NCBI RefSeq assembly: GCF_029855045.1
Contig: NZ_CP123228.1
Location: 1,426,001-1,490,000, forward strand
DNA length: 64,000 bases
Direction: 5' to 3'
Origin: Piscinibacter sp. XHJ-5
GTDB lineage: Bacteria; Pseudomonadota; Gammaproteobacteria; Burkholderiales; Burkholderiaceae_C
In this document: piece after piece, positions 9,933-50,893 of the stretch
How positions within the stretch are numbered: position 1 is the stretch's first letter
Layout: every line of letters starts with the position of its first letter
The notes under the pieces: generated by a model
The model's database searches: none
What the model saw: the letters and a program-made list of their open reading frames with translations, nothing else
Told to the model about the DNA's origin: nothing
Translations under genes and position numbers: made by a program

Positions 9933-10828
9933 CATCACAACCTCTCAAGCTCGGCTTCATCGGCCTGGGCATCATGGGCGGCCCGATGGCCGCGCACCTG
10001 ATCGCGGCCGGCCATCAGCTGTTCGTGCACACGCGCGGCAGGCTGCCGGCGGCCATCGCGCAGAGCAGCGCCACGGTCTGCGTCAGCGCGCGCGGCGTGG
10101 CCGAGCGCGCCGACATCGTCTTCCTGATGCTGCCGGACACGCCGGACGTGGAGGCGGTGCTGTTCGGCGAGGCGGGGGTGGCCAGCGGGCTGAGCCGTGG
10201 CAAGGCGGTGGTGGACATGAGCTCGATCTCGCCGCTGGCGACCAAGGAGTACGCGCGGCGCATCGTGGAGCTCGGCTGCGAGTACCTGGACGCGCCGGTG
10301 TCCGGCGGGGAGGTGGGCGCCAAGGCGGGCTCGCTGACGATCATGGTGGGGGGCACGCCGGAGGGGTTCGAGCGGGTCAAGCCGCTGTTCGAGCTGATGG
10401 GCAAGAACATCACGCTGGTGGGCGGCCACGGCGACGGGCAGACCACGAAGGTGGCCAACCAGATCATCGTGGCGCTGAACATTGCGGCGGTGGGCGAGGC
10501 GCTGCTGTTCGCGAGCAAGGCGGGGGCGGATCCGGCCAAGGTGCGCCAGGCGCTGATGGGCGGGTTTGCGGCCAGCCGCATCCTGGAGGTGCACGGCGAG
10601 CGCATGATCCAGCGCACGTTCAACCCGGGGTTTCGCATCGGGCTGCACCAGAAGGACCTGAACCTGGCGCTGGCCGGGGCCAAGGCGATCGGCGTGGCGC
10701 TGCCGCAGACGGCCGGGGCGGCGCAGCTGATGCAGGCGTGCGCGGCCAACGGCTGGGACCAGCTCGATCACTCGGCGCTGGTCAAGGCGCTGGAGCTGAT
10801 GGCGCGGCACGAAGTGGCGCCGGGGTGA
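9929..10828 (+). CDS. glxR: 2-hydroxy-3-oxopropionate (tartronate semialdehyde) reductase
   Basis: A 299-residue beta-hydroxyacid dehydrogenase that reduces tartronate semialdehyde to D-glycerate. The Rossmann motif is GFIGLGIMGGPMAAHL (about residues 9-24), the substrate motif is DAPVSGGEVGAKAGSLTI, and the catalytic Lys lies in LHQKDLNLAL. The start is the ATG overlapping the hyi stop as ATGA; an upstream in-frame ATG lies inside hyi and is not needed. The paralogue GarR has the same activity, so glxR is chosen because of the gcl-hyi context. Confidence 0.94.
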   Translation: MTSQPLKLGFIGLGIMGGPMAAHLIAAGHQLFVHTRGRLPAAIAQSSATVCVSARGVAERADIVFLMLPDTPDVEAVLFGEAGVASGLSRGKAVVDMSSISPLATKEYARRIVELGCEYLDAPVSGGEVGAKAGSLTIMVGGTPEGFERVKPLFELMGKNITLVGGHGDGQTTKVANQIIVALNIAAVGEALLFASKAGADPAKVRQALMGGFAASRILEVHGERMIQRTFNPGFRIGLHQKDLNLALAGAKAIGVALPQTAGAAQLMQACAANGWDQLDHSALVKALELMARHEVAPG

Positions 10829-10871
10829 TGGGCGAGCCGCTGCGCCATCGTGGCGACAACCCTCCTATCTG

Positions 10872-12161
10872 ATGAAGTCGATCAATCCGCCCGAGTTGCT
10901 GCGCACGCTGTACGACGCGGCGGTGGCGCGGGCGCGGCCGGAGGTGGTGATGGGCGAGCACCTGCCGCCGCCACCGAAGGGTCGCACGCTGGTGCTGGGT
11001 GCGGGCAAGGCCGGCGGGGCGATGGCCGCGGCGGTCGATGCGCTGTGGCCGCGCGAGGCGCCGTTGAGCGGGCTGGTGGTCACGCGCTACGAGCACGTGC
11101 CGCCGGCGTACCGCGCGGCGCCCGGGCGCATCGAGGTGGTGGAGGCGGCGCACCCGGTGCCCGACGAGGCGGGGCGGCGCGCCGCGCAGCGCATCGTCGA
11201 GCTCACGCGGGGGCTGACGGCCGACGACCTGGTGCTGTGCCTGATCTCCGGGGGCGGCTCGGCGCTGCTGTCGCTGCCGGCCGAGGGGCTGACGCTGCAG
11301 GACAAGCGTGCGATCAACCAGGCGCTGCTGCACAGCGGGGCGGCCATCGACGAGATGAACTGCGTGCGCAAGCACCTGTCGGCGATCAAGGGCGGCCGCC
11401 TGGGCGCGCTGTGCGCGCCGGCCCAGGTGGTGACGCTGCTGATCAGCGACGTGCCGGGGGACGATCCGGCGGTGATCGCCAGCGGGCCGACGGTGGCTGA
11501 CCCGAGCAGCTGCGCCGATGCGCGGGCGATCCTGCAGCGCTACGGCATCGCGGTGCCGCAGGCGGCGCAGCGCGGGCTGGACAGCGGCGCGTTCGAGACG
11601 CCCAAGCCGGGCGACGCGCGGCTGGCCGGGCAGGTGGTCAAGCTGATCGCCACGCCGCAGCAGAGCCTGGAGGCGGCGGCCGCGCGGGCGCGCGCGGCGG
11701 GGCTTGGGGCGCACATCCTGAGCGACGAGATCGAGGGCGAGTCGCGCGAGGTGGGCAAGGTGCACGCGGCGCTGGCGCGGGCGGTGGCGCGGCGCGCGCA
11801 GCCGTTTGCCGCGCCGTGCGTGATCCTGTCGGGCGGGGAGACGACGGTGACGGTGCGCGCCGCGGGCGGGCGCGGCGGGCGGGCCACGGAGTTCCTGCTG
11901 GGCTGCACGCTGGCGCTGCAGGGCGAGCCGCGGGTGCATGTGCTGGCCGCCGACACCGACGGCATCGACGGGGTGCAGGACAACGCCGGGGCGGTGGCCG
12001 GGCCCGACACGCTGGCGCGCGCGCGGGCGCTGGGGCTGAACGCGCGCGACGCGCTGGAGCGCCACGACGCGTACCCGTTCTTCCAGGCGCTGGGCGACCT
12101 GGTGGTGACGGGGCCGACCTTCACCAACGTGAACGACTTCCGCGCGGTGCTGGTGCTGTAG
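10872..12161 (+). CDS. ttuD: Glycerate 2-kinase (MOFRL family)
   Basis: A 429-residue cytosolic kinase of the GckA/TtuD type that converts D-glycerate to 2-phosphoglycerate with ATP. The N-terminal domain has GRTLVLGAGKAGGAM and LISGGGSALL, and the C-terminal MOFRL domain has LSGGETTVTVR and ADTDGIDG. It follows glxR after 43 bases and completes the route from glyoxylate to lower glycolysis. It could also take glycerate made from tartrate by the dehydrogenase at 4.1 kb, which is why the tartrate-utilisation symbol is used; early annotations of this family as hydroxypyruvate reductase are unlikely here. Confidence 0.93.
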   Translation: MKSINPPELLRTLYDAAVARARPEVVMGEHLPPPPKGRTLVLGAGKAGGAMAAAVDALWPREAPLSGLVVTRYEHVPPAYRAAPGRIEVVEAAHPVPDEAGRRAAQRIVELTRGLTADDLVLCLISGGGSALLSLPAEGLTLQDKRAINQALLHSGAAIDEMNCVRKHLSAIKGGRLGALCAPAQVVTLLISDVPGDDPAVIASGPTVADPSSCADARAILQRYGIAVPQAAQRGLDSGAFETPKPGDARLAGQVVKLIATPQQSLEAAAARARAAGLGAHILSDEIEGESREVGKVHAALARAVARRAQPFAAPCVILSGGETTVTVRAAGGRGGRATEFLLGCTLALQGEPRVHVLAADTDGIDGVQDNAGAVAGPDTLARARALGLNARDALERHDAYPFFQALGDLVVTGPTFTNVNDFRAVLVL

Positions 12162-22752: not shown

Positions 22753-25320
22753 TCAGGCCGATGCGGGTTGCCAAGCCGGACGGCGTCCCTGCCGCCACCA
22801 CACCGCCAGCGCCACCAGCGCCGCCGGGATGAAGACCCAGTTCGGCGAAGGTCGCTGCGGGTTCGGCAGCTTGAGCTCGACGATGCGATAGCCCTGCTCG
22901 ACGCCCAGCTTGCGCGCGCGGCTGCCGAACTTGACGGCGGCGATCTCGATGTCGCTGCCCAGCTGGCTCAGCGTGACGCCTGCGTCGCGCAGCCGCTCGC
23001 GGCCGTTGACGCCGCGGCCCATCGGAAGGGCCACGGTCTTGTTCTGTGCATCGCCGGCCAGCGTCTCGCCGGCGATGCCGACCACCAGCCAGTCGTCCTC
23101 CTCCAGCGTGTCGGCCACCTTGTAGAGATCGGCAGCGGGTGCGCTCACGTAGCGCGGCGCGATGCGGTCGATCACCCAGTCGGGCCGGAAGAACAGGAAG
23201 GTCGCGACGAGCAGCGCGGCGACCTCGAGCCAGCTGCAGCGCGCGCGGAACCAGCGCATCGTGGCGGCCGCGAAGAGCAGCGAGGCCACCGTGCCGGTGA
23301 TGCAGACCACGACCACCTGGGCCCAGGAGTGCACGCCGATGAACAGGATCTGCGGATTGAAGATGAAGACGAAGGGCAGCACGGTGGTGCGCAGGCTGTA
23401 CCAGGTGGCCTGCATGCCGGTCTGGTTGGGATCGGCGCCCGAGATCGCCGCCGCCGCATACGAGGCCAGTCCGACCGGCGGCGTCACGTCGGCGAGGATG
23501 CCGAAGTAGAAGACGAACAGGTGCACCGCGATCAGCGGGATCACCAGCCCGGAGCGCGCACCCAGCTCGACGATCACCGGCGCCATCAGCGTTGCCACCA
23601 GGATGTAGTTGGCGGTGGTCGGCACGCCGGCGCCGATGATGAGGCAGATGATCGCGGTGAGGACGAGCATCACCAGCACGTTGCCCGCGGACACCAGCTC
23701 GACGAAGTCCGTCATCATCAAGCCCATGCCGGTGAGCGTGATCACGCCGACGATGAGCCCGGCGCTGGCGCACGCGACCCCGATGCCGATCATGTTGCGC
23801 GCGCCCAGCACGAGCCCTCTCCACAAATCGGCCAGGCCCTGGCGCCACGCGCGTTGCAGCGGGGCCTTGCTGAAGAGGGCGAGCATCACCGGTTGCAGCG
23901 GCACCATCGCCATCACGGTCACGGTGGCCCAGAAGGCGGACAGTCCTGGCGACAGCTCTTCGACCATCAGGCACCACAGCAGCACGACGATGGGAATCAT
24001 GAAGTGCAGGCCGGCGCGCACGGTGGGCCACGGCTCGGGCAGGTGCACGTCGGCGGCCAGCGGGTCGTCCACCGGCACCGGCGGATGGCGCGACGCGTAG
24101 GCCATCAGCATCACATAGGCCAGCGCCGTGAGCGCGGCCAGCACCCAGCCGGCCGCCGACCCGGTGAGCGCCTGCACGCCGGTGATCAGCGCGTAGATCG
24201 CGCCCAGCGCGACCAGCGTTCCCGATACGCCGAGGCCCCAGCCGAGCAGGCGCTCCCGCCACGCCGGTATGCGGCTGCGCACCAGCGGCTTCAGGTCGTG
24301 CTTCAGCGCCTCCAGGTGCACGATGTAGAACAGCGCGACGTACGAGATGACGGCCGGCAGCGCGGCATGCTTGATGATCTCCGCGTAAGGGATGCCGACG
24401 TACTCCACCATCAGGAAGGCGGCCGCGCCCATCACCGGCGGCATGATCTGGCCATTGATCGACGACGCGGCCTCGATCGCGCCGGCCTTCACCCCCGAGT
24501 AGCCGGTGCGCTTCATCAGCGGGATGGTGAAGATGCCGCCCGACACCACGTTGGACACCGACGAGCCCGACACCACGCCGTTGAGCGCGGAGGACACCAC
24601 CGCCACCTTGGCCGGTCCGCCGCGAAGGTGCCCGAGCAGCGCCAGCGACACCTGCAGCATGTAGTTGCCGGCCCCGGCGATGTCGAGCAGGGTGCCGAAC
24701 AGCACGAACAGGAAGATGAACTGCACCGAGACGCCCAGCGCGACGCCGTACACGCCTTCGGTGGTGAGCCACATGTGCGAGATGAAGCGCGACAGCGACG
24801 CGCCGCGGTGCTGGATCACCTCGGGCATGTAGGGGCCGGCGAACACGTACAGCATGAACAGGCCGGTCGTCACCAGCATGCCGAAGCCCATCGCCCGGCG
24901 CGTGGCCTCGAGCATGATCAGCACGCCGGCGATGCCCACGACGATGTCCATGCGCGTGGGCGAGCCGGGCCGCTGTGCGAGCTCCTTGTAGAACAGGAAC
25001 AGGTAGGCCGCGCAGAACGCCCCGACCAGCGCCAGCAGCCAGTCGGTCCAGGGAATCACGCGGCGCGACGAGCGCTGGAAGGCGGGGAAGGCGCAGAACG
25101 CCAGGAACACCGCGAAGGCCAGGTGGATGGCGCGCGCTTCCGTGTCGTTCAGGATGCCGAAGCCGAAGGTGAAGGGCAGCGGCGATGCATACCAGAACTG
25201 GAACAGCGACCACGCGCCGGCGATCAGCGCGAGCGCCGCGCCGACCGCCCCGGCAGGCTCGCGTCCGCCGAGGTCGGCTTCCTTGACGAGCTGGTCGAGG
25301 TCGGGGGTGGCGGTGGCCAT
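22753..25320 (-). CDS. TRAP transporter permease, fused 4TM/12TM (DctQM type)
   Basis: An 855-residue inner-membrane protein joining the small (DctQ-like, about residues 20-170) and large (DctM-like, about 170-690) TRAP permease subunits, as usual for TAXI-TRAP systems. Characteristic stretches are GSSVSNVVSGGIFTIPLMK, INGQIMPPVMGAAAFLM, GAGVPTTANYILVATLMAP and ADVTPPVGLASYAAAAI. A C-terminal soluble part of about 130 residues (DTLEEDDWLVVGIAGE onwards) and a last helix resemble the DUF3394 extension seen in this subgroup. The TAXI receptor gene ends 5 bases upstream. Energy coupling is by an ion gradient; the substrate is unknown. Confidence 0.93.
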   Translation of the reverse strand: MATATPDLDQLVKEADLGGREPAGAVGAALALIAGAWSLFQFWYASPLPFTFGFGILNDTEARAIHLAFAVFLAFCAFPAFQRSSRRVIPWTDWLLALVGAFCAAYLFLFYKELAQRPGSPTRMDIVVGIAGVLIMLEATRRAMGFGMLVTTGLFMLYVFAGPYMPEVIQHRGASLSRFISHMWLTTEGVYGVALGVSVQFIFLFVLFGTLLDIAGAGNYMLQVSLALLGHLRGGPAKVAVVSSALNGVVSGSSVSNVVSGGIFTIPLMKRTGYSGVKAGAIEAASSINGQIMPPVMGAAAFLMVEYVGIPYAEIIKHAALPAVISYVALFYIVHLEALKHDLKPLVRSRIPAWRERLLGWGLGVSGTLVALGAIYALITGVQALTGSAAGWVLAALTALAYVMLMAYASRHPPVPVDDPLAADVHLPEPWPTVRAGLHFMIPIVVLLWCLMVEELSPGLSAFWATVTVMAMVPLQPVMLALFSKAPLQRAWRQGLADLWRGLVLGARNMIGIGVACASAGLIVGVITLTGMGLMMTDFVELVSAGNVLVMLVLTAIICLIIGAGVPTTANYILVATLMAPVIVELGARSGLVIPLIAVHLFVFYFGILADVTPPVGLASYAAAAISGADPNQTGMQATWYSLRTTVLPFVFIFNPQILFIGVHSWAQVVVVCITGTVASLLFAAATMRWFRARCSWLEVAALLVATFLFFRPDWVIDRIAPRYVSAPAADLYKVADTLEEDDWLVVGIAGETLAGDAQNKTVALPMGRGVNGRERLRDAGVTLSQLGSDIEIAAVKFGSRARKLGVEQGYRIVELKLPNPQRPSPNWVFIPAALVALAVWWRQGRRPAWQPASA

Positions 25321-25325
25321 GGACC

Positions 25326-26297
25326 TCAGTTCACCCAGCCCTTCTCCTTGTAGTACCTCAATGCGCCCTCGTGCATCGGCGCGCTCAGCCCGTCCTTCAC
25401 CATGCTCTCCGGCTTCAGGTTCACCAACGCCGGATGCAGCTTCTTGAACTCGTCGAAGTTGTCGAACACCGCTTTCACGACCGCATACACCTGGTCGGCA
25501 GGCGCCTTGGACGAGGTGACCACCGTGGCCAGCACGCCGTAGGTCTGCGTGGGCTCGGGGTTGTTGGGGTACAGGCCGCCGGGGATGGTGGCGCGCGCGT
25601 AGTAGGGCTTGTCGGCGACCAGCTTGTCGACCGCGGAGCCGGTGAGCGAGACCAGCCTGGCGCCGCAGGAGGTGGTGGGGTCCTGGATGTTGGCCGACGG
25701 ATGGCCCACGCCGTAGAAGAAGCCGTCGATCTTGCCGTCGCACAGCGCCGGCCCGTGCTCGTCGGCCTTCAGCTCCGAGGCGAGCGAGAAGTCGCCGAGC
25801 TTCCATCCCATGGCCGCGAGCAGCTCTTCCATCGAGGCGCGCGTGCCGGATCCCGGGTTGCCGACGTTGAAGCGCTTGCCCTTGAAGTCGGCGAAGGTCT
25901 TGACGTTGGCTTCCTTGCGCGCCAGCACGGTGAAGGGCTCGGGGTGCACCGAGAACACCGCGCGCAGGTCACCGTAGGCGCCGCCGTCCTTGAACTGCGC
26001 GAGGCCCTTGACCGCGTTGTACTGCACGTCCGACTGCGTGAACCCGAGGTCGAGCTCCCCCGCCTTGATGGTGTTGACGTTGAACACCGAGCCGCCGGTC
26101 GATTCGACCGAGCAGCGAATGCCGTGCTTGGCGCGGTCCTTGTTGACCAGCCGGCAGATGGCGCCGCCGGCCGCGTAGTAGACGCCGGTGACGCCGCCCG
26201 TGCCGATGGTGACGAACTTCTGCTGCGCGGCGGCCGGTGCGCTGGAGAGGGCGGCGGCCAGGAGTGCCGCGGCGCTGGCGAGGGGTCGGATGCTCAT
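25326..26297 (-). CDS. TAXI-type TRAP solute-binding protein
   Basis: A 323-residue periplasmic receptor with a signal peptide (about residues 1-24, cleavage after PAAAQ). The mature N-terminus [25 protein letters not shown] is diagnostic of the TAXI family. Other marks are [27 protein letters not shown] and [19 protein letters not shown]. It precedes the fused permease gene by 5 bases and follows the aminotransferase gene by 12, so the three form an operon. Known TAXI receptors bind glutamate, sialic-acid-like or 2-oxo acids in few cases; here the aminotransferase suggests an amino or oxo acid, as inference. Confidence 0.93.
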
Positions 26298-28645: not shown

Positions 28646-31342
28646 TCACGCCACGAACCGGCACTGCGACGCCACCGTCCGCGTGTCCATGTTGCGACCT
28701 CGATTCAGGTGATCGTCGATCTCCGCCGCGCAGCCCAGCATGCGCGGGTACAGGAAGATCGTGAAGGCTGCGGTCTCCAGGTCGCGCTCGCCGATCTCCC
28801 CGCGCTGCAGCGGCTGCCACAAGAGCTTGAGCAGCAGCGCCGCGATGACCGCATCGACGTTCACGCAGTACACGTTGCGCGACACGCCGGCGTCGAACAG
28901 CGCCTGCACCAGCTCCCGGTAGAAGGCGTGGAAGACGTTGGTTTCGCCGCGTCGCTCGAACAGCTCGGCGATGAACACTTCGCGAGGGTCGTGGTTCACC
29001 GGCTTGTCCTTGAACACCGGATGGTTCACGCCCGGCAGCTTGGCGATGTCGAGGCTGCCGACATGCTTCTGCCGGCTCTTGTAGGCCGCGTACTGATCCA
29101 CCGCGCGCGCCGCCAGCGCCTTCAGGTCGAGTCCGTGCGCGCGTGAAGCCGGATCGGCCAGGCCGCTGTCGCGGAACTGCTCCATCAGGAAGGCGATGCC
29201 CTCGTAGCCGTTGCCGCCGTGGGTGTAGCCGGTGTGCGTGAGAAAGCCCATCAGCGCCTTGTTGAGCTGAACGCGCTCCGGCGACTCGGGACCGTCGGCC
29301 GAGACGGCGCCCTTGGCGCCTTGCGCCGAGATGGCGCCCGGGCCGTTGGTGAGCAGCAGGCCGATCAAGGTCTGGAACGCGAACAGGTCGTTGACCGTCG
29401 GCACGCGGCCGAACAGCGCCGCGTAGCCGATCTCGGTGAGGCTCAGCTCGGTGAGCATCGCCTGCGTGGTGAAGCCGCAGAAGCGATCCGCCTCGTGTCG
29501 CGACGCATCGGCCGAAGCGCCGATCAGCGTGCCGAAGAGCTGCATCCACCACGGCAGGCTCTCGGCCGTCAGGCGCGAGATGCGCTTGCGCATCAGGGGT
29601 CCCCAGGCCATCGAGGTGGTGATGGCCGCGAGCACCGCGTCGGCCGTGGGATTTCCCAGCGCGGCGAGCCAGCGAACGAACACCGATCGGATCCCGCGCG
29701 CCTTCAGTCCCGCCAGCATGGCCTCGGCGCGCGGATCGCTTTGGGCGGCTGTCAGCGACTCGGCGCCGTCGCGATCGACACGGGCCAGGTCGAAGCCTTC
29801 GTCGAACGCATCGGCCAGACCTGCGGCGGCGAAGCGCTCGATCATCAGCCGGGCCGCGCGCCGCGCGGCCTCCTGGCGCTTGGGGCCGACGATGGAGGCC
29901 GCGGCGGCGAGCACCGCGTTCGGCGCATTGCCGGCTTCCCGGCTGGCCTGCGCCGCGGCGAGCTCGGGCATGCCACGCAGGTTGACGAAGGCGGCGACGG
30001 CCACGTTGATGAGCTGGCGGTCGATCTCGCCGCCGGCCTCGTGCAGCAGCGCCAGCCCGACGTTCGCCTCCAGCGGGTACTGCGCCGCCTGCAGCATGGA
30101 CACGCCGTGCAGGCTGCTCACCTGCGTGGTGGGATCCATCTGCGATGCGCCGGACGCATCCTTGAGCGCCTGGCGCGGCACCGTGCAGCCGATCTGCCGG
30201 TTCAGCAGCGCGATCTGCTCGTTGTACGGCGCGACGGCGGCGACCACGGGCAGCGCCAGCTCGGGGGGCAGCGCAAGCCCTTGGTCGGACCCGAACCACG
30301 GCTTCAGCGCGAGGCTGCCTTCCGGCTCGAAGTCGGGCATCGTCGCGTTGGCGCGCATCACGGCAGTGAGCGCCGCCGGGATGTGCGCGATGTTGGTCAC
30401 CACGGCGCCGCGCGACGAGAACACCGGCTGGTCGGGCGTGAAGATGCCGTCCACGCCGAACTTGTCCATGAACCAGCGTTCTTTGGCCAGCGCATCGTCG
30501 CTGCCTCCGGCCATCGCGCCGGCGTGGCCGACGGCGCGCGTGAGCTTGCTCTTCCAGCGGCCGACCACGCAGGCCACGACCGGCTTGGTGAAGTGCGCAT
30601 CGAGCTCGTAGTAGCCGCCCGGCTCGCAGTACAGCACCGCCGCCTTGCTGCGCGCGTCGTTGGCCAGCGCAAAGGCGAACTCCGGCGCCGCGTAGTGGAT
30701 GTAGACATCCTTGCCGCTGGAGATCACGGTGGTCGTGCCCCAGCCGGCCATGCGCAGGTACTGCGCGATGGTGGTGGAGAAGCCGCCCGAGTTGGAGAAG
30801 ATGGCGATCGAGCCGCGGCGCAGGGTGTCGCCCGGGTTGTCGCCGCCCAGCGCGCCGCCGATGCGCACCTGGTTCCAGGAGTCGGCCACGCCGAGGCCGT
30901 TGGCGCCGAAGATGTCGACGCGGTTCGCCTGTCCCATGGCGCGGATCTCGCGCGCGTCGTGCACCGCGATCTTCTCGGTGATGATGAAGACCTTGCGCAG
31001 ATCGGAATTGACGCGGATCAGCTCGGCCACGCCGTCGCGCGCCGCCGCCGGCGGCAGGTACACCACGCCGCAGTTGAAGCGGTGTCCCGCCTCCAGGCCT
31101 TCCTTGACGCTGTTGTAGACCGGCACGTTGCCGATGGGCGTGGGCAGCGTCTGGCCGCCCTTGCCGGGCGCGGTGCCGAACACCACGTTGCCGCCGGAGT
31201 AGGCATGGCTCACCGGCGTGACATCGCTCGATTCGCCGCCCAGGATGTTGAGCACGCAGACGCGGTCCTCACGCGAGGCGATCTGCGTCAGCGAGCTGAT
31301 GCCGACGTGGTACTTGAAGTCGCCGACGGATTGTCTTGGCAT
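28646..31342 (-). CDS. ATP-citrate-lyase-like large subunit (SCS-alpha + citrate-synthase-like)
   Basis: An 898-residue CoA-dependent ligase/lyase subunit. Residues about 1-340 match the succinyl-CoA-synthetase alpha-type region of ATP-citrate lyase, with the phosphoacceptor His273 in RAVGHAGAMAGGSDDA. Residues about 580-898 match the citrate-synthase-homology domain: GPGAIS at 667, His774 in LPGVNHPVFK, Asp830 in VNVDAVIAALL. Where classical enzymes read TADHGPAVSG, this protein reads LTNGPGAIS, so the first catalytic His appears to be Asn666. Residues about 350-580 are an extra region; classical AclA has about 610 residues. It follows its partner by 10 bases. Not certainly citrate-specific: another tri- or dicarboxylate is possible. 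Confidence 0.75.
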   Translation of the reverse strand: MPRQSVGDFKYHVGISSLTQIASREDRVCVLNILGGESSDVTPVSHAYSGGNVVFGTAPGKGGQTLPTPIGNVPVYNSVKEGLEAGHRFNCGVVYLPPAAARDGVAELIRVNSDLRKVFIITEKIAVHDAREIRAMGQANRVDIFGANGLGVADSWNQVRIGGALGGDNPGDTLRRGSIAIFSNSGGFSTTIAQYLRMAGWGTTTVISSGKDVYIHYAAPEFAFALANDARSKAAVLYCEPGGYYELDAHFTKPVVACVVGRWKSKLTRAVGHAGAMAGGSDDALAKERWFMDKFGVDGIFTPDQPVFSSRGAVVTNIAHIPAALTAVMRANATMPDFEPEGSLALKPWFGSDQGLALPPELALPVVAAVAPYNEQIALLNRQIGCTVPRQALKDASGASQMDPTTQVSSLHGVSMLQAAQYPLEANVGLALLHEAGGEIDRQLINVAVAAFVNLRGMPELAAAQASREAGNAPNAVLAAAASIVGPKRQEAARRAARLMIERFAAAGLADAFDEGFDLARVDRDGAESLTAAQSDPRAEAMLAGLKARGIRSVFVRWLAALGNPTADAVLAAITTSMAWGPLMRKRISRLTAESLPWWMQLFGTLIGASADASRHEADRFCGFTTQAMLTELSLTEIGYAALFGRVPTVNDLFAFQTLIGLLLTNGPGAISAQGAKGAVSADGPESPERVQLNKALMGFLTHTGYTHGGNGYEGIAFLMEQFRDSGLADPASRAHGLDLKALAARAVDQYAAYKSRQKHVGSLDIAKLPGVNHPVFKDKPVNHDPREVFIAELFERRGETNVFHAFYRELVQALFDAGVSRNVYCVNVDAVIAALLLKLLWQPLQRGEIGERDLETAAFTIFLYPRMLGCAAEIDDHLNRGRNMDTRTVASQCRFVA

Positions 31343-31352
31343 GGTGGTCTCC

Positions 31353-32639
31353 TCAGGCGGCTGCCGGTGTGGAAATGCCCAGTCGCGCAGCGACCTGCTG
31401 CCGACCGCCGGACTTCATCCACGCGTCGGCCTTCTTCGCGTACTGGATGACCTCGCTCATGTCGGAGTCGAAGCCGAAGAGGCGGTACGGCAGCCCCAGC
31501 GCGTCGCAGGTGTCGCGCAGCGCGCCCATGCCGCGCACGAGGTTCGGGCCGCCGCGGCCCAGCACGACGTACAGCGGCGTGGGGCCGTAGCGGCTGAAGT
31601 GCTCGCGCAGCGCGTCGGCCATCGCGCGCAGCGTTTCATGGATGTCGGTGTTGTTCGACTTGCCGCCGATGATGAACAGCACGTTCGACTGCTTCAGCCA
31701 GTGCTTGAAGCAGATGCGCGCGACCTCCTTCATCTTCTCGTACGGCGGGTTGCCGCCGAAGTCGGACGAGATGATCGCGTCGTCGCCGAGCATCTCGGTG
31801 ACCAGCGAATTGGCGCCGCCGCCGAAGGTCGGCGCGAGCACGGTGCCGCGCTCGTTGATGACGTAGACGTCGCTCTGGCCCTGGTGCGTGCGCAGCGTGT
31901 TGATCTCCTGCTCGAAGTCGGAGTAGTCGGCGGCGAACAGGTGCGGCGGCAGCCCGAGGCGGGCCCAGCGCGGGTCATCGCGGTCGAAGCCGCACTTGAA
32001 GTCGCAGGCGACCGGCGTGAGCCGGCCCTTCGCGTCCTCGCGCATGCGGATCGGGTTGAGCTCCAGCGTCGTCATGCCGAAGTCGTGGAACAGCTCCCAC
32101 AGCTTCGGCAGCTGCTGCACCAGCGGCGAGATGATTTCCTTGGGCGCCCCGATCTCGGTGAGCGCGTTGGCCACGACGAAAGCCTTCAGCCCGGTGAGCG
32201 GGTCGAACGGCACCATCGCCACCTGCTTCCTGTCGACCTCCTCGATGTCCATGCCGCCCACGTGCGTCAAGGTCATCGTCGGGGCGCGGAAATGCGTCGA
32301 GTCGGTGATCGAGAAATACACCTCGTGGCGCGCCGGCACGCCGGCCTCGAAGGTGACGCCATTGGCCTTGGCGCGCACGTGGCCCACGCGGTGCTCGGCG
32401 AAGTAAAGCCGCTCCTTCTCGGCCAGCGCGGTCTTCAGGTCGCCGGCGCGGCCGAGCAGCCCGGCCTTGCCCTTCTTGCCGATGCCGCCCTTGAAGACCG
32501 GCTTGATGAAGACCTGCTTGTGACGGTCGATCAGCGACTTGATCTCTTCCTCGCTGGCCGCCGGGCCGAGCACCTCGGTGGCGGGAAAGCCGACGAACTG
32601 AAGCAGGCGCGCGCCGTGAAGCATGCCGGTGATTTGCAT
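31353..32639 (-). CDS. ATP-citrate-lyase-like small subunit (ATP-grasp + citrate-binding domain)
   Basis: A 428-residue partner of the downstream large subunit. The N-terminal ATP-grasp part has VFIKPVFKGGIGKKGKAGLL and MTTLELNPIRM (metal/ATP site). The C-terminal half matches the citrate-binding domain: GGGANSLVTEM, LFIIGGKSNNTDIHETL and YVVLGRGGPNLVRGM, aligning with the IANFTN and RRGGPN elements that bind citrate in ATP-citrate lyase. The Asn, Thr and Arg contacts seem kept. Length agrees with the classical small subunit (about 400). The gene order, small then large with 10 bases between, indicates one operon with promoter in the 168-base spacer shared with the divergent amidohydrolase. 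Confidence 0.8.
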   Translation of the reverse strand: MQITGMLHGARLLQFVGFPATEVLGPAASEEEIKSLIDRHKQVFIKPVFKGGIGKKGKAGLLGRAGDLKTALAEKERLYFAEHRVGHVRAKANGVTFEAGVPARHEVYFSITDSTHFRAPTMTLTHVGGMDIEEVDRKQVAMVPFDPLTGLKAFVVANALTEIGAPKEIISPLVQQLPKLWELFHDFGMTTLELNPIRMREDAKGRLTPVACDFKCGFDRDDPRWARLGLPPHLFAADYSDFEQEINTLRTHQGQSDVYVINERGTVLAPTFGGGANSLVTEMLGDDAIISSDFGGNPPYEKMKEVARICFKHWLKQSNVLFIIGGKSNNTDIHETLRAMADALREHFSRYGPTPLYVVLGRGGPNLVRGMGALRDTCDALGLPYRLFGFDSDMSEVIQYAKKADAWMKSGGRQQVAARLGISTPAAA

Positions 32640-40624: not shown

Positions 40625-44493
<3,869 letters not shown>

Positions 44494-44561
44494 GGGCATG
44501 ACGGGCTCGGTAGATACCCGAAAGGTACCGCTTTGCGCCCCGAGGTGTATACGATCCGGGC

Positions 44562-44574
44562 GATATTGCATATC
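44562..44574. promoter_or_regulatory. Putative LysR operator between xdhA and LysR
   Basis: GATAT-TGC-ATATC is a perfect 5-base-arm palindrome just before the LysR start codon; a GTATAC palindrome lies ten bases further toward xdhA. This A/T-rich patch stands out in G+C-rich surroundings and probably holds both promoters and operators. Confidence 0.45.
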
Positions 44575-44585
44575 AGGATGAAGAT

Positions 44586-45572
44586 ATGACGCAGCGGGCG
44601 GATTTCGACAAGATCGAGCTCTACCTCATCCGGGTCCTGCACACCTTGATCACCGAACGCAGCGTCTCGCGGGCCGCCTTGCAACTGCAAAGCTCGCAAC
44701 CCGCCGTCAGCGCCCAGCTCCGCCGCCTGCGCGAGCTGACCGGCGATCCGCTGCTGGTGCGCGCGGGCAACGGCATGACGCCGACGCAGGTGGCGCTGCA
44801 GCTGGTGCAGCCGGCCGCCAGCATGCTGCAGGAAGCCGAGCGCCTGTTCAGCCCCAAGATCCGCCAGCGCGGCTTCGATGCGCCGACCAGCGAGGCCACC
44901 TTTCGCATCGCCGCCAGCGACTACCTCGATCCGCTGTTCCTCCCGGAGCTGGTGGCCAAGCTGAAGCACGAGGCGCCGCAGGTGCGGCTGGAGCTGCTGC
45001 CGCTGTCGGGCGACTTCGACTACCGGCGCGGGCTGGCGGCCGGCGATGTGGACCTGGTGGTCGGCAACTGGCTCGAGCCGCCCGGCGAGCTGCACCTGGG
45101 CCGCCTGATGAGCGACGAGATCGTCTGCCTGGTCGCCGAGGACCATCCCGCCGTGCGCCTGTCGAGCGGGCGCGGCTGGACGGTGGAGAAGTACCTCGAT
45201 TGCGAGCACGTCGCGCCGACGCCCACCTTCCGCGGCGCACGTGGCGTCATCGACGACCACCTCGAAGGCCTGGGCGTCAGCCGCGACATCATGGTGCGCA
45301 GCGCGCACTTCAGCCTGATCCCGCTGATGGTGGCGCAAAGCCTGCTGGTGCTCACGACCGGGCGCCTGTTCTGCTCGCGCTACGTCGACAGCCTGCCGGT
45401 GCGCATCGTGCGCTGCCCCGTGGCATTCCCGCCGCTGACCTATTTCCAGCTGTGGCACGACCTCACGCATGCCTCGGCGGGCATGCGCTGGCTGCGAGAG
45501 CAGGTGCGCGACGTCGCGCGCGGGCTGGTGACGCATGGGTTGCCGCAACGTTCCAAGGGGAGAGCGGCATGA
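44586..45572 (+). CDS. LysR-family regulator of the purine locus
   Basis: A 328-residue LysR protein. HTH residues about 20-60 (ERSVSRAALQLQSSQPAVSAQL); the effector domain begins near residue 95 (ATFRIAASDYLDPLFLPEL). The N-terminal pattern DKIELYLIRVLHTLITERSV is like the NodD/PcpR-type branch. It is divergent from xdhA and 175 bases upstream of guaD, with a repeat between, so it probably controls one or both purine gene sets. The C-terminus is about 20 residues longer than typical (VTHGLPQRSKGRAA). Effector unknown. Confidence 0.87.
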   Translation: MTQRADFDKIELYLIRVLHTLITERSVSRAALQLQSSQPAVSAQLRRLRELTGDPLLVRAGNGMTPTQVALQLVQPAASMLQEAERLFSPKIRQRGFDAPTSEATFRIAASDYLDPLFLPELVAKLKHEAPQVRLELLPLSGDFDYRRGLAAGDVDLVVGNWLEPPGELHLGRLMSDEIVCLVAEDHPAVRLSSGRGWTVEKYLDCEHVAPTPTFRGARGVIDDHLEGLGVSRDIMVRSAHFSLIPLMVAQSLLVLTTGRLFCSRYVDSLPVRIVRCPVAFPPLTYFQLWHDLTHASAGMRWLREQVRDVARGLVTHGLPQRSKGRAA

Positions 45573-45616
45573 GCGACTGGCGTTTCAGCACAGAGGGAAA
45601 CGGATCGACCGCGCGG

Positions 45617-45711
45617 CTCCCTCTCCCGCTTGCGGGAGAGGGTCGGGGTGAGGGGCGCCGGCTCGCGCGCGGCCCTCACCCCTGCCCCTCTCCCGCAAGC
45701 GGGAGAGGGGA
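45617..45711. repeat. Composite CCCTCTCCCGC repeat, two hairpins (copy 4)
   Basis: Two perfect hairpins: CCCTCTCCCGC-TT-GCGGGAGAGGG and CCCCTCTCCCGC-AA-GCGGGAGAGGGG. Between them, GTCGGGGTGAGGGGCGCCGG faces CGGCCCTCACCCC, so the whole unit is also one larger inverted repeat. It lies between the LysR and guaD genes. Confidence 0.9.
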
Positions 45712-45747
45712 CTTGTTCCACCTACGGCCATCACGGGTCCGCATTGC

Positions 45748-47088
45748 ATGAATGCCAACGACATCGCGCCGCAAGGCGCCCCGCTTCAGCGCATCGCCCT
45801 GCGCGGCGACCTGCTCGACTTCACCAGCGCGCCGGAATGGGGCGCCGTCGACTCGAAGGCCGTGCGCTTTCGCGAGGACCACTGGCTGCTGATCGAGAAC
45901 GGCCGCATCGCCGGCGCGCAGCCGGGGGACCAGCTGCCGGACGACAGCTGGACGCAGCGCGATCACCGCGGGCGGCTCATCCTGCCGGGTTTCATCGACA
46001 CCCATGTGCACAGCCCGCAGCTGGACGTGATCGCCAGCCACGGCACCGCGCTGCTCGACTGGCTGGACACCTACACCTTCCCGGCCGAGCGCCGCTATGC
46101 CGACGTGCTGGAGGCGCAGGCCGGCGCGGCGCGCTTTCTCGACGCGCTGCTGGCGCACGGCACCACCAGCGCGGTGGTGTTTCCCACGGTGCACAAGGTC
46201 AGCGCCGACACGCTGTTCGCCGCGGCCCACGAGCGCGGCATGCGGCTGGTTGCGGGCAAGGTGCTGATGGACCGGCATGCGCCCGACGGCCTGCGCGACG
46301 AGGCGCCCGACCGCGGCGCGCGCGATTGCGTCGACCTGATCGACCGGTGGCATGGCAAGGGGCGCCTGGCCTACGCCGTGACGGTCCGCTTTGCACCGAC
46401 GAGCACGCCCGAGCAGCTCGCCATGGCGGGGCAGCTCTGCACCGCCTATCCGGGCGTGTACATGCAGACGCACCTGGCCGAGAACCGCGACGAGGTCGCG
46501 TGGGTGCACCGGCTGTTCCCCGAAGCGCGCAGCTACCTCGACGTGTACGACCGTGCCGGCCTGCTCAATGCGCGCGGCGTCTTCGCGCACGGCATCTGGC
46601 TGGACGACGAGGACCGCGCGGCCCTGCGCGACGCCTGCGCGCAGATCGCCCACAGCCCGTCGTCCAACCTCTTCCTCGGCAGCGGCCTGTTCGGCTGGCG
46701 GGCCGCCGAAGACGCCGGCGTGCGGGTCAGCGTCGCCACCGACGTCGGTGGCGGCACCAGCCTGTCGATGCAGCGCACGCTGGCCGACGCCTACAAGGTG
46801 CAGGCGCTGGCCGGGGAGCGGCTCACCGCATGGAAGGCCCTGCATGCCGCGACGCTGGGCGCCGCGGCGGCGCTGGGACTGGGCGACGAGATCGGCTCGC
46901 TGAGCACCGGCTGCGTCGCCGATCTGTGCATCTGGGACTGGGCCCGCGGCCCGGTCGCCGAACGGCGCTTCGAAGTGGCGCGCAGCTTGCATGAACGTGT
47001 GTTCGCATGGATGACCTTGTCGGACGAGCGCAATCTCGTGGCGACCTTGGTCGAAGGCAACGTGAGGTACCCACATGGCCGTGACTGA
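45748..47088 (+). CDS. guaD: Guanine deaminase
   Basis: A 446-residue amidohydrolase that deaminates guanine to xanthine. Metal ligands are in PGFIDTHVHSPQ (about residues 80-91), MQTHLAENRDE (about 243-253) and FAHGIWL; the catalytic Asp is in ATDVGGGTSLSM. The 9xxxPGFVDTHVHxPQ signature separates guanine deaminases from related chlorohydrolases. The product, xanthine, is the substrate of XdhAB encoded just upstream on the other strand. The transporter ATPase gene follows, with an in-frame alternative start overlapping this gene's end. Confidence 0.95.
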   Translation: MNANDIAPQGAPLQRIALRGDLLDFTSAPEWGAVDSKAVRFREDHWLLIENGRIAGAQPGDQLPDDSWTQRDHRGRLILPGFIDTHVHSPQLDVIASHGTALLDWLDTYTFPAERRYADVLEAQAGAARFLDALLAHGTTSAVVFPTVHKVSADTLFAAAHERGMRLVAGKVLMDRHAPDGLRDEAPDRGARDCVDLIDRWHGKGRLAYAVTVRFAPTSTPEQLAMAGQLCTAYPGVYMQTHLAENRDEVAWVHRLFPEARSYLDVYDRAGLLNARGVFAHGIWLDDEDRAALRDACAQIAHSPSSNLFLGSGLFGWRAAEDAGVRVSVATDVGGGTSLSMQRTLADAYKVQALAGERLTAWKALHAATLGAAAALGLGDEIGSLSTGCVADLCIWDWARGPVAERRFEVARSLHERVFAWMTLSDERNLVATLVEGNVRYPHGRD

Positions 47089-47179
47089 TCTGCAGAGCAT
47101 CGCCGTGGCACGCCGGCCACTAGACTGGCGGCTTGCCGACCCTCACCCGCCGGCGGCGCCGAGCGCGTCGACAGGCGTC

Positions 47180-48712
47180 ATGCCGATGCTGCGCCTCGAA
47201 CTCGTCGACATCTCCAAGCAATACCCGGCGGTCAAGGCCAACGACCGCGTGAGCCTGCGGGTGAAGCCGGGCGAGATCCATGCGGTGCTCGGCGAGAACG
47301 GCGCCGGCAAGTCGACGCTGATGAAGATCATCTACGGCGCGGTGCGACCCGACGAAGGCGAGGTGCGCTGGAACGGCGAGACCGTCGCCATTCGCAACCC
47401 GCACGAGGCGCGCGAGCTGGGCATCAGCATGGTGTTCCAGCACTTCAGCCTGTTCGACACGCTGACCGCGGCGGAGAACGTCTGGCTGGGGCTGGACAAG
47501 TCCTACTCGCTGGCCGACGTCACGCAGCGCATCACGCAGGTCGCGCACGCCTATGGCCTCGACGTCGATCCGCTGCGGCCGGTGCACACGCTGTCGGTCG
47601 GCGAGCGCCAGCGCGTGGAGATCGTGCGTGCGCTGCTGACGCAGCCCAAGCTGCTGATCCTCGACGAGCCCACCTCGGTGCTCACGCCTCAGGCGGTGGA
47701 GAAGCTCTTCGTCACGCTGCGCCAGCTGGCCGCCGAGGGCTGCAGCATCCTGTACATCAGCCACAAGCTCGACGAGATCCGCGCGCTGTGCCACCACTGC
47801 ACGGTGCTGCGCGGCGGGCGCGTCACCGGCGAGGTCGATCCGACGAAGGAGAGCAACGCCAGCCTGTCGCGGCTGATGATCGGCGCCGAGCCGCCGCAGC
47901 TGCAGCACCAGCAGGCGCAGGCCGGCGAAGTGGTGCTCGGCGTGCGCGGACTGACGCTGCCCAAGCAGGACCATTTCGGCATGAGCCTCGCCGACGTCCG
48001 GTTCGAGGTGCGTTCCGGCGAGATCGTCGGCATCGCCGGCGTCTCGGGCAACGGGCAGCAGGAGCTGATGGCCGCGCTGTCCGGCGAGGACACGCGCGCC
48101 TCGTCCGACAGCATCCAGCTGTTCGACCATCCGATCGGCAGGCTGTCGCCGGCCGCGCGGCGCCGCCGCGGCCTGCATTTCGTTCCGGAGGAACGGCTGG
48201 GCCGCGGCGCGGTGCCCACGCTGTCGCTGGCGCAGAACACGCTGCTCACGCGCGCCGAGCTGGTGTCGCGCTCGGGCTGGATCCGCACCGCCGCGGTGGT
48301 CGAGCTCACCCGTTCACTGATCGCGCGCTTCAACGTGAAGGCCGGCGGCCCCGACGCGACGGCCAAGAGCCTGTCCGGCGGCAACCTGCAGAAGTTCATC
48401 GTCGGGCGCGAGATCGATGCGCAGCCGCGCCTGCTGATCGTCTCGCAGCCGACCTGGGGCGTGGACGTCGGCGCCGCCGCGCAGATCCGCGGCGAGCTGC
48501 TGAAGCTGCGCGATGCGAGCTGCGCCGTGCTCGTCGTCAGCGAGGAGCTCGACGAGCTGTTCGAGATCACCGACCGGCTGCACGTGATCGCGCAGGGCCG
48601 GCTGTCGCCGTCGATCGCGACCTCGCAGGCGACGGTGGAGATGATCGGGCAGTGGATGAGCGGCTTGTGGGGCGCGGCCCCGTCACCCGCCACCGACCCG
48701 TCCGACGCATGA
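47180..48712 (+). CDS. ABC transporter ATPase, nucleoside/purine type (tandem domains)
   Basis: A 510-residue cytoplasmic ATPase with two ABC domains, as in NupA/YufO and RbsA types. First domain: Walker A GENGAGKST (38-46), signature LSVGERQRVEI, Walker B LLILDEPTS. Second domain: degenerate Walker A region (GVSGNGQQE), signature LSGGNLQKFIV and LLIVSQPTWGVD, where SQPT replaces the usual Walker-B-type DEPT. Start MPMLRL is used by homology; an earlier ATG at 47075 overlaps guaD and would add 35 unrelated residues. It is followed by two permease genes and BmpA receptor genes. Confidence 0.93.
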   Translation: MPMLRLELVDISKQYPAVKANDRVSLRVKPGEIHAVLGENGAGKSTLMKIIYGAVRPDEGEVRWNGETVAIRNPHEARELGISMVFQHFSLFDTLTAAENVWLGLDKSYSLADVTQRITQVAHAYGLDVDPLRPVHTLSVGERQRVEIVRALLTQPKLLILDEPTSVLTPQAVEKLFVTLRQLAAEGCSILYISHKLDEIRALCHHCTVLRGGRVTGEVDPTKESNASLSRLMIGAEPPQLQHQQAQAGEVVLGVRGLTLPKQDHFGMSLADVRFEVRSGEIVGIAGVSGNGQQELMAALSGEDTRASSDSIQLFDHPIGRLSPAARRRRGLHFVPEERLGRGAVPTLSLAQNTLLTRAELVSRSGWIRTAAVVELTRSLIARFNVKAGGPDATAKSLSGGNLQKFIVGREIDAQPRLLIVSQPTWGVDVGAAAQIRGELLKLRDASCAVLVVSEELDELFEITDRLHVIAQGRLSPSIATSQATVEMIGQWMSGLWGAAPSPATDPSDA

Positions 48713-48722
48713 GGTGCCCGCC

Positions 48723-49823
48723 ATGCTGAAACTCGAATCCCGTCCCGCCCCCAGCAAGCTGATGTCCGTCGCATCGCCCGTGCTCGCGCTGGCGATCACC
48801 GTCGTGCTCGGCGTGATCCTCTTCATGCTGCTCGGCAAGGACCCGCTGCGCGGGCTGCAGGTGTTCTTCATCGAGCCGGTGAAGAGCGGCTATGCGCTGT
48901 CCGAGCTGGCCCTGAAGGCGACCCCGCTGCTGCTGATCGCGCTGGGCCTGTCGCTGTGCTTTCGCTCCAACGTGTGGAACATCGGCGCCGAAGGCCAGTA
49001 CATCATCGGCGCCATTGCCGCGGGCGGCGTCGCGATGATGGCCGACAAGGACACGAGCCGCGCGATCGTGCTCGCCATCCTCGCCGCCGGCGTGCTGGGC
49101 GGCATGGCGTGGGCCGGCATCGTCGCCTTCCTGCGCGACAAGGCCAACGCCAACGAGATCCTGGTGAGCCTGATGCTGGTGTACGTGGCCGAGATGGTGC
49201 TGAGCTACCTCGTCTACGGGCCCTGGAAGGATCCCGCCGGCTACAACTTCCCGCAGACCATCAGCTTCCTCGACCCGACCAAGATCCCGCGGCTCGTCAC
49301 CGGGTGGCGCGTCAACATCGGGGCGGTCATCGCGCTGCTCGCGGTGGCGGCGTTCTGGCTGTTCCTGTTCCGCGTCTATGCGGGGTTCCAGCTCCAGGTG
49401 GGCGGGCTCGCGCCGATGGCGGCGCGCTACGCCGGCTTCTCGTCGCGCAGGGCGCTGTGGATGGCCATGCTCGGCTCGGGCGGCATGGCCGGCCTGGCCG
49501 GCGCGCTGGAAGCGGCCGGACCGCTCGGCCAGCTGACGCCGCACGTGCCGGCGGGCTACGGCTTCGCCGCCATCATCGTCGCCTTCGTGGGCCGGCTGCA
49601 TCCGGTGGGCGTGGTCTTCTCGGCCATCCTGATGAGCATGTTCTACATCGGCGGCGAGCTCGCGCAGTCGCGCCTGGGCCTGCCCAAGTCGCTGACCGGC
49701 GTGTTCCAGGGCCTGCTGCTGTTCACGTTGCTGGCCTGCGACACGCTCATCTACTACCGCCTGCGGTGGCAGTCCGCGCCGCGCGGCCATGCCGTCGCGC
49801 CTGCCGTCGCCAAGGGAGCATGA
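48723..49823 (+). CDS. ABC transporter permease 1, nucleoside/purine type
   Basis: A 366-residue inner-membrane permease of the BPD_transp_2 family (NupB/YufP-like), with about nine hydrophobic segments. Family marks are LCFRSNVWNIGAEGQYIIGAI (about residues 79-99), VSLMLVYVAEM and GYGFAAIIVAFVGRLHPVG. The start ATG follows GAGGTG with correct spacing; a GTG nine bases earlier is possible. It lies 10 bases after the ATPase gene and 1 base before the second permease gene, so all three are co-translated parts of one importer. Confidence 0.93.
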   Translation: MLKLESRPAPSKLMSVASPVLALAITVVLGVILFMLLGKDPLRGLQVFFIEPVKSGYALSELALKATPLLLIALGLSLCFRSNVWNIGAEGQYIIGAIAAGGVAMMADKDTSRAIVLAILAAGVLGGMAWAGIVAFLRDKANANEILVSLMLVYVAEMVLSYLVYGPWKDPAGYNFPQTISFLDPTKIPRLVTGWRVNIGAVIALLAVAAFWLFLFRVYAGFQLQVGGLAPMAARYAGFSSRRALWMAMLGSGGMAGLAGALEAAGPLGQLTPHVPAGYGFAAIIVAFVGRLHPVGVVFSAILMSMFYIGGELAQSRLGLPKSLTGVFQGLLLFTLLACDTLIYYRLRWQSAPRGHAVAPAVAKGA

Positions 49824-49824
49824 G

Positions 49825-50745
49825 ATGGAACAGCTCGCCCTGCTCATCGCCGCCACGCTGAACGCGGGCACCGTGCTGGCCTTCGCCGCACTCGGCCTGC
49901 TGATCAACGAACGCGCCGGCATCGTCAACCTCGGCGCCGAAGGGATCATGCTGGTCGCCGCGATCGCCGGCTTCGCGACCTGCGCGCACACCGGCAACGA
50001 CTGGCTCTCGTTCGCGGCCGGCATGGGCGCCGGCGCGCTGCTCGCGCTCGTCTTCGGCTGGCTGGTGATCTGGCTCAACACCAACCAGTACGCGAGCGGC
50101 CTGGCGCTGGCCCTCTTCGGCGCCGGCTTCTCGGCCTTCGTCGGCATCTCGTACACGCAGGCCAAGCTGCCGGAGCGGGTGCACTACCAGATCGCGGGCC
50201 TCGCCGACATTCCCTTCATCGGGCCGGCGCTGTTCAAGCAGCATCCGATGGTGTATCTCGCGATCGCCCTGACGGTGGGCCTTGCCTGGTTCTTCAACCG
50301 CTCGCGCGCCGGACTGGTGCTGCGCGCCGTCGGCGAGTCGCCCGACTCGGCGCATGCGCTGGGCTATCCGGTGCGCCGCATCCGGCTGCTGGCGGTGGTC
50401 GTCGGCGGGGCGCTGTGCGGGCTGTCGGGCGCCTACATCTCGGTGATCTACACGCCGCTGTGGGTCGAAGGCATGGTCGCCGGCAAGGGCTGGATCGCGC
50501 TGGCGCTGACGACCTTCGCGACCTGGCGTCCGGCCCGCGTCCTGCTGGGCGCCTACCTGTTCGGCGGCGTGACGATGCTGCAGTTCCACCTGCAAGGCGA
50601 AGGCGTCGAAGTGTCCAGCCAGCTGCTGACCATGCTGCCGTACCTGGCGACCATCGTCGTGCTGGTGCTGATCTCGCGCAATGCGACTTGGATACGCGTC
50701 AATATGCCGGCTTCCCTCGGGAAGCCATTTTTCCCGGGTTCATGA
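49825..50745 (+). CDS. ABC transporter permease 2, nucleoside/purine type
   Basis: A 306-residue permease partner (NupC/YufQ-like) with about eight helices. Marks are AALGLLINERAGIVNLGAEGI (residues about 20-40), SGLALALFGAGFSAFVGI and GKGWIALALTTFATWRP. It begins one base after permease 1 ends. Its last 13 residues, MPASLGKPFFPGS, are encoded by a 42-base element repeated 74 bases downstream with almost only synonymous differences; the element also folds as a hairpin over the stop region. Confidence 0.93.
   Translation: MEQLALLIAATLNAGTVLAFAALGLLINERAGIVNLGAEGIMLVAAIAGFATCAHTGNDWLSFAAGMGAGALLALVFGWLVIWLNTNQYASGLALALFGAGFSAFVGISYTQAKLPERVHYQIAGLADIPFIGPALFKQHPMVYLAIALTVGLAWFFNRSRAGLVLRAVGESPDSAHALGYPVRRIRLLAVVVGGALCGLSGAYISVIYTPLWVEGMVAGKGWIALALTTFATWRPARVLLGAYLFGGVTMLQFHLQGEGVEVSSQLLTMLPYLATIVVLVLISRNATWIRVNMPASLGKPFFPGS
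50704..50745 (+). repeat. 42-base coding-hairpin element, copy A
   Basis: This is the 3' end of permease 2: codons for MPASLGKPFFPGS and TGA. CTCGGGAA (50716-50723) pairs with TTCCCGGG (50731-50738) around a 7-base loop. Copy B lies at 50820-50861. Confidence 0.85.
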
Positions 50746-50778
50746 GCCCGGGCGACGAGCCGCCTCTAGCCCGGGCTC
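50744..50778. terminator. Strong GC hairpin after permease 2
   Basis: GAGCCCGGGC and GCCCGGGCTC form perfect 10-base arms around a 15-base loop, beginning in the permease stop codon. A second hairpin, CCCCCTCGGGGGG, follows at about 50781-50793. No T-run is present. They may attenuate transcription between permeases and the receptor gene. Confidence 0.5.
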
Positions 50779-50819
50779 AGCCCCCTCGGGGGGCGCCTTG
50801 GCGGGGGCCTCGTTGTTTC

Positions 50820-50861
50820 ATGCCGGCGTCGCTGGGGAAGCCGTTTTTCCCCGGCTCATAA
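50820..50861 (+). repeat. 42-base coding-hairpin element, copy B
   Basis: It reads ATG to TAA and again encodes MPASLGKPFFPGS, but with different third bases from copy A. GCTGGGGAA (50831-50839) pairs with TTCCCCGGC (50847-50855). It ends 32 bases before the BmpA start codon and could be a 13-codon leader ORF or a gene remnant. No ribosome site of good quality is seen before its ATG. Confidence 0.8.
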
Positions 50862-50893
50862 TCTCGCTCGCTCTCAACCTCGGAGATCACAAG

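What the first reader, a model, noticed from the sequence alone, without database searches (positions are those of the whole stretch)
28646..32639. ATP-citrate-lyase-like enzyme with an altered catalytic His and a long insertion
The sequence shows two adjacent subunits that align with both halves of ATP-citrate lyase: ATP-grasp plus citrate-binding elements in the small subunit, and SCS-alpha plus citrate-synthase-like domains in the large one. The phospho-His (His273) and the later His774 and Asp830 are kept, but the first citrate-synthase-type His (DHGP context in classical enzymes) aligns with Asn666. The large subunit is about 290 residues longer than classical AclA. No other reductive-TCA genes are nearby. 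I infer a ligase/lyase working on a citrate-like acid other than citrate, or with a changed lyase step.
Basis: partly seen in the sequence, partly recalled or inferred. Interest (0 to 1): 0.7.

Follow-up and report, generated by a model that had tools for sequence, protein, structure and literature searches.

The report
Type II ATP-citrate lyase pair
The two genes encode a known but little-studied bacterial version of ATP-citrate lyase: its odd active-site residue is shared by every relative examined, its extra length is a worn second copy of its own citrate-splitting domain, and its branch of the family often sits beside citrate-type uptake genes instead of reverse-Krebs-cycle genes.

The parts
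31353..32639 (-). small subunit (428 aa): ATP-grasp plus citrate-binding domain
   Evidence: Pfam PF08442 and PF16114; best solved relatives: citryl-CoA synthetase large subunit 6hxq_B, E 4.9e-31, and 6hxi_A, listed as 'Citrate lyase, subunit 1'
31647..31655 (-). Asn329-Asn330-Thr331, aligned with NNT of citryl-CoA synthetase 6hxq_B and NFT of 6hxi_A
   Evidence: alignments; invariant in 74 of 74 small subunits; codons checked. That this stretch contacts citrate is recalled from ACLY structures
31554..31556 (-). Arg362 of the GRGGPN motif
   Evidence: 74 of 74; aligned with RRGGPN of 6hxi_A
28646..31342 (-). large subunit (898 aa)
   Evidence: the only full-length match in the genome, the other three being 29-34% identical partial ones; end-to-end structural match to AclA 6hxj_D, 531 residues aligned, model 19-898, rmsd 19.9
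30338..31342 (-). succinyl-CoA-synthetase-alpha-like domain, residues 1-335 (limits approximate)
30524..30526 (-). phospho-His273
   Evidence: 409 of 411 rows (1 Asn, 1 gap); codon checked
29507..30190 (-). degenerate second citryl-CoA-lyase-like domain, residues 385-612 (the 'insertion')
28646..29506 (-). C-terminal citryl-CoA-lyase-like domain, residues 613-898, with stop
   Evidence: NCBIfam NF004869 at 617-890; hhalign pieces to citrate synthases
29345..29347 (-). Asn666 at the place of the first catalytic His
   Evidence: 411 of 411 rows; codon AAC
29021..29023 (-). His774, aligned with the His of GFGHRVYK in citrate synthases
   Evidence: 411 of 411
28982..28984 (-). Arg787 (DPR motif)
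   Evidence: 411 of 411
28853..28855 (-).
   Evidence: 411 of 411

Best explanation
This is a type II ATP-citrate lyase. The small subunit binds ATP and citrate; the phosphoryl group passes through His273 to make citryl-phosphate, then citryl-CoA on the synthetase half; citryl-CoA is split to acetyl-CoA and oxaloacetate with the help of the C-terminal lyase domain, in which Asn666 stands where other enzymes have His, with His774, Arg787 and Asp830 kept. Residues 385-612 are a worn tandem copy of that domain, probably structural: a built-in partner in the lyase core, which is a homotetramer in human ACLY. In the window's branch the enzyme most likely serves citrate breakdown or acetyl-CoA supply, not the reductive TCA cycle. 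Shown: family resemblance, domain duplication, residue conservation, genomic settings. Inferred: substrate, reaction, role.
For: 26 of 39 loci outside the window's branch have Kor, monomeric IDH or aconitase beside the pair, the cluster that PMC6315080 gives for type II ACL (passages read). The two type II ACL primers of PMC3522073 (passages read) find their best site of the large-subunit gene at the same aligned place in 76 (forward), 56 (reverse) and 51 (both) of 82 rows. C-terminal active-site residues are in 411 of 411 while those of the worn copy drift (Asp568 in 299 of 411). NNT and Arg362 in 74 of 74 small subunits. Window branch: TctA, 2HCT or TcuC-type carriers beside 17 of 43 loci, a sensor-kinase cluster beside 17 of 43; 10 loci with TctA against 0.44 expected.
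Against: No assay of a purified type II ACL was met in the papers searched. The window's pair has no citrate carrier, aconitase or malic enzyme recognised beside it; the genome's 7 TctA genes all lie more than 100 kb away, and in a same-genus relative no such gene was recognised by eye among 17 predicted ORFs. 26 of 43 branch loci have none of the three carriers. TctA and TcuC types also carry other acids (recalled). PrpF-type genes stand beside 4 of 43, the one scanned matching 4-oxalomesaconate tautomerase. The window's genome has a RuBisCO-family gene and a 2-oxoacid:acceptor oxidoreductase alpha-like gene, so a tie to CO2 fixation is not excluded. Asn for His might weaken cleavage in that domain.
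Confidence: 0.7

Rival explanations
1. In the window's branch the enzyme acts on a citrate-like acid other than citrate (for example methylcitrate, citramalate, or an acid related to tricarballylate or oxalomesaconate), while the rTCA branch acts on citrate.
For: The branches are separate in the tree with different neighbours. Residues next to the key ones differ between the sets: 670 is Ala in 118 of 120 of the window's nearest relatives and Thr in 120 of 120 of the L008 set, 665 Thr against Ser; in the small subunit 328 is mostly Ser against Ala and 335 mostly Glu against Val. Neighbours include a TcuC (tricarballylate/proton symporter) match over its cut-off and a 2HCT carrier below the citrate-symporter cut-off, and a 4-oxalomesaconate tautomerase match over its cut-off.
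Against: NNT and Arg362 of the small subunit and Asn666, His774, Arg787, Asp830 of the large one are the same in both branches.
Confidence: 0.15
2. The lyase domain has lost its chemistry: the pair makes citryl-CoA and either stops there or cleaves it in the synthetase half, the lyase domains being structural or allosteric.
For: Asn replaces the first catalytic His in every row, and the second copy has no counterpart of the His774 loop in the profile alignment. PMC10115795 (abstract and passages read) argues that in human ACLY the citrate synthase homology domain is allosteric and cleavage occurs in the synthetase half; Glu240, presumed counterpart of its E599 (equivalence recalled), is in 409 of 411.
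Against: His774, Arg787, Asp830 and Arg881 are in 411 of 411, as expected of a working site; I recognised no separate lyase among the recurrent neighbours, though not all of the 52 clusters were scanned.
Confidence: 0.12
3. An ordinary succinyl-CoA synthetase paralogue.
For: Source names such as 'succinyl-CoA synthetase alpha subunit'.
Against: Citrate_bind domain, two lyase domains, scores far below the SCS cut-offs.
Confidence: 0.02

Closest known systems
Type II ATP-citrate lyase of tubeworm symbionts and Thioflavicoccus (PMC3522073, PMC6315080)
   Same: Primer places and, in the sister branch, the aclAB-acn-idh-kor-tfr-hdr gene order
   Different: The window's branch has no rTCA genes beside it; its records include Paraburkholderia, Caballeronia, Cupriavidus, Variovorax, Microvirga, Halomonas, Amaricoccus and others. 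The reference proteins themselves were not in hand
Classical ATP-citrate lyase (Chlorobium limicola AclBA, human ACLY)
   Same: Same domain order at both ends; end-to-end structural match
Citryl-CoA synthetase plus citryl-CoA lyase of Hydrogenobacter thermophilus
   Same: Closest solved sequences: 6hxq_A E 2.2e-34, 6hxq_B E 4.9e-31; lyase fold of 6hxp
   Different: There the lyase is a separate 268-aa chain with His

Membership tests
ATP-citrate lyase (broad) | ATP-grasp plus citrate-binding domain in one subunit, SCS-alpha plus lyase domain in the other | tested here: met
ATP-citrate lyase (broad) | phosphorylatable His in the SCS-alpha part | tested here: met
   His273 present; 409 of 411 relatives
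ATP-citrate lyase (broad) | ATP- and CoA-dependent cleavage of citrate to acetyl-CoA and oxaloacetate | not testable with these tools
   needs an assay
Classical (type I) ATP-citrate lyase | catalytic His (DHG) in the lyase domain | tested here: not met
   Asn666 by sequence alignment
Classical (type I) ATP-citrate lyase | large subunit of about 610 aa with one lyase domain | tested here: not met
   898 aa, two lyase domains
Type II ATP-citrate lyase | sites of the acl2F1 and acl2R1 primers (PMC3522073) in the large-subunit gene | tested here: met
   Window gene: reverse site 3 mismatches of 21 (0 of 300 shuffles as good), forward site 7 of 22 (27 of 300 shuffles as good or better, so weak alone), both the gene's best site and at the common aligned place. 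Over 82 rows: forward 76, reverse 56, both 51
Type II ATP-citrate lyase | direct sequence match to a tubeworm-symbiont or Thioflavicoccus protein | not tested
   those records were not recovered by name
Type II ATP-citrate lyase | rTCA gene cluster (acn, idh, kor, frd/tfr, hdr) beside the pair | tested here: not met
   26 of 39 loci outside the window's branch, 0 of 43 in it, the window included; I read this as a property of the sister branch, not a condition of the enzyme family
Succinyl-CoA synthetase | score over the curated cut-off for alpha and beta subunits | tested here: not met
   115.8 against 336 and 57.4 against 370 bits

The most novel reading that the evidence does not exclude
ATP-citrate lyase of a second architecture, with two tandem lyase domains (one worn out) and Asn for the first catalytic His, works as a citrate-utilisation enzyme outside the reductive TCA cycle in many proteobacteria, and cleaves citryl-CoA by chemistry that does not use that His.
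Probability: 0.45. Interest if true: 0.7.

Novelty: new variant of a known kind. Interest (0 to 1): 0.52.

Why it matters
Bacterial ATP-citrate lyase is used as a marker gene of the reductive TCA cycle (for example PMC12894919, passages read); a branch that stands beside citrate-type uptake genes and without rTCA genes would make that marker misleading and points to an ATP-driven route of citrate use. The natural Asn at the His position and the doubled lyase domain bear on an open dispute about whether the lyase domain of ACLY performs the cleavage or acts allosterically (PMC10115795): enzymes without that His can be assayed.

Tried and rejected
Rejected: plain succinyl-CoA synthetase; an active-site loss peculiar to this protein (Asn in 240 of 240, 82 of 82 and 411 of 411 rows); insertion of an unrelated domain. 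In viral contigs 8 stretches matched a pattern and none encoded a relative.

Led nowhere: a sequence match of the C-terminal domain to classical ACL in the PDB (only weak hits, best 6hxp E 1.1); a direct profile match of the middle domain to citrate synthases (prob 0.9), settled by comparison with the C-terminal domain and by structure. Literature: searches showed nothing on type II ACL outside rTCA organisms or on a doubled lyase domain in the titles and abstract starts listed; several lists were capped (for example 10 of 52) and only open-licence papers are held. Hugler and Sievert 2011, Markert 2007 and the 2019 ACL structure paper were not read; PMC3522073 cites enzymatic data for the Riftia symbiont.

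Weaknesses: the 80 named loci are the best 80 of 495 relatives, ranked against an rTCA-branch sequence; the 330 proteins are the best 120 of 3049, 3057 and 3102 hits in three searches, with overlaps. Gene calls are mechanical, contigs unequal. Only representatives of neighbour clusters were scanned; KorB, KorG, FrdA, HdrA and 2HCT representatives scored below their curated cut-offs. The 20 genomes of the TctA control were chosen by me knowing which loci had TctA, and fragments count as matches; five of the ten TctA loci are Microvirga and two more are sisters, so five or six are independent (P for six or more about 7e-6). The tree labels include broad kinase and regulator clusters. L045, with TctA and a PrpF-type gene, L048, with malic enzyme, L051 and L054 fit neither main group cleanly; L046 was too short for the tree.

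Mended on checking: the RuBisCO search came out positive, so 'heterotroph' was dropped for the window's organism and two odds were lowered slightly; primer figures now rest.
Full report
What is there. The window carries, on the minus strand, a 428-aa gene (31353-32639) and, 10 bp on, an 898-aa gene (28646-31342). Pfam finds ATP-grasp_2 and the ATP-citrate-lyase citrate-binding domain in the first and CoA_binding and Succ_CoA_lig in the second; NCBIfam adds a citryl-CoA lyase match at residues 617-890 (1.7e-7, below its cut-off). The closest solved sequences are the two subunits of Hydrogenobacter citryl-CoA synthetase. In a 6.65-Mb one-contig genome the large subunit has one full-length match, itself, and the genome also has an ordinary citrate synthase. 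The gene is patchily spread: 3 of 5 genomes of the genus, 2 of 200 of the order, 2 of 185 of the class, the own genome counted each time.

The Asn. A profile of the C-terminal domain aligns ISNGPG with VIDHGIAP of citryl-CoA lyase (weak, E 1.1), and that stretch aligns with the 'DHE' of citrate synthases. His774 and Arg787 align with GFGHRVYK..DPR of citrate synthases. So Asn666 does stand at the first catalytic His, by sequence. It is not a peculiarity of this protein: 240 of 240 proteins, 82 of 82 rows made of 80 named loci, L008 and the window, and 411 of 411 rows made of 330 proteins and 81 loci, partly overlapping, have Asn. His774, Arg787 and Asp830 are 411 of 411, His273 409 of 411.

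Which family. PMC3522073 (passages read) describes a 'type II ACL' of tubeworm symbionts and gives primers. Over 82 rows the forward primer finds its best site of the gene at one aligned place in 76, the reverse in 56, both in 51; for the window's gene the reverse site is clear (3 mismatches, 0 of 300 shuffles) and the forward one weak (7 mismatches, 27 of 300 shuffles as good or better). For the rTCA-side rows L008, L012 and L014 the forward site fits (5, 5 and 7 mismatches) and the reverse does not (10 each). PMC6315080 (passages read) gives the cluster: aclAB with acn, idh, korABCD, tfrAB and flx-hdr. Of the 39 rows outside the window's branch 26 have Kor, monomeric IDH or aconitase beside the pair, 20 an Hdr-type gene and 10 a Frd-type gene (representatives named). 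That is the same cluster.

The window's branch. The tree of 81 large subunits puts rTCA-context rows on one side and 43 rows including the window on the other, with one change between the two context labels. In those 43 none of the Kor, IDH, aconitase, Hdr or Frd clusters occurs in the stretches held; TctA stands beside 10, a 2HCT carrier beside 3, a TcuC-type symporter beside 4 (17 distinct), a sensor-kinase cluster (representative with 2CSK_N) beside 17, malic enzyme beside 7. At the density of TctA in 20 such genomes (95 matches in 134.6 Mb) 0.44 would be expected; ten seen, five or six of them independent. Outside the branch one of 39, L045, also has TctA. The window itself shows none of this; in a same-genus relative none was recognised by eye; the own genome has 7 TctA, all more than 100 kb away, and only distant relatives of the TcuC-type symporter (32% or less over most of its length).

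Reading. The simplest account is one activity, ATP-driven citrate cleavage, in two settings. NNT and Arg362 of the small subunit are the same in both branches, 74 of 74, though neighbouring residues differ. Shown: domain make-up, conservation, branch split, neighbours. Inferred: substrate, reaction, role. Whether the window's organism is a heterotroph is open: its genome has a RuBisCO-family gene (443.9 bits) and a 2-oxoacid:acceptor oxidoreductase alpha-like gene. PMC10115795 (abstract and passages) reports that in human ACLY the citrate synthase homology domain may be allosteric, with H900, R1065 and D1026 at the CoA site; a natural family with Asn at the place of that His (equivalence recalled) is a test case.

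Noticed in passing
window 3080-12161: A block with a LysR-type regulator (by eye), an isocitrate/isopropylmalate-type dehydrogenase, a TctC receptor, a hydroxyisobutyrate-type dehydrogenase and a MOFRL glycerate-kinase-like gene: perhaps tartrate or glycerate use (Pfam; pathway recalled).
   Followed up: partly
window 42970-54308: Purine-related block: molybdopterin dehydrogenase subunit, amidohydrolase, ABC transporter with PnrA-like receptor, adenosine deaminase.
   Followed up: partly
window 22753-26297: TAXI-type TRAP receptor and a DctM/DUF3394 permease frame, the only transporter recognised near the pair; substrate unknown.
   Followed up: no
G000:C1:4545426-4546346: A RuBisCO large-chain family gene in the own genome, 443.9 bits, over the cut-off; whether it is a true RuBisCO with a Calvin cycle was not looked at.
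   Followed up: no
G000:C1:6282205-6282702 (L009): A 619-aa 2-oxoacid:acceptor oxidoreductase alpha-like gene in the own genome, far from the pair.
   Followed up: no
G000:C1:5093860-5094576 (L006, L007): A second, diverged citrate-synthase-domain gene in a 580-aa open frame; a relative's frame (L109) begins like a DNA-binding protein, by eye.
   Followed up: no
L046: The large subunit is split into two open frames, the second 518 aa; could be an assembly error.
   Followed up: no
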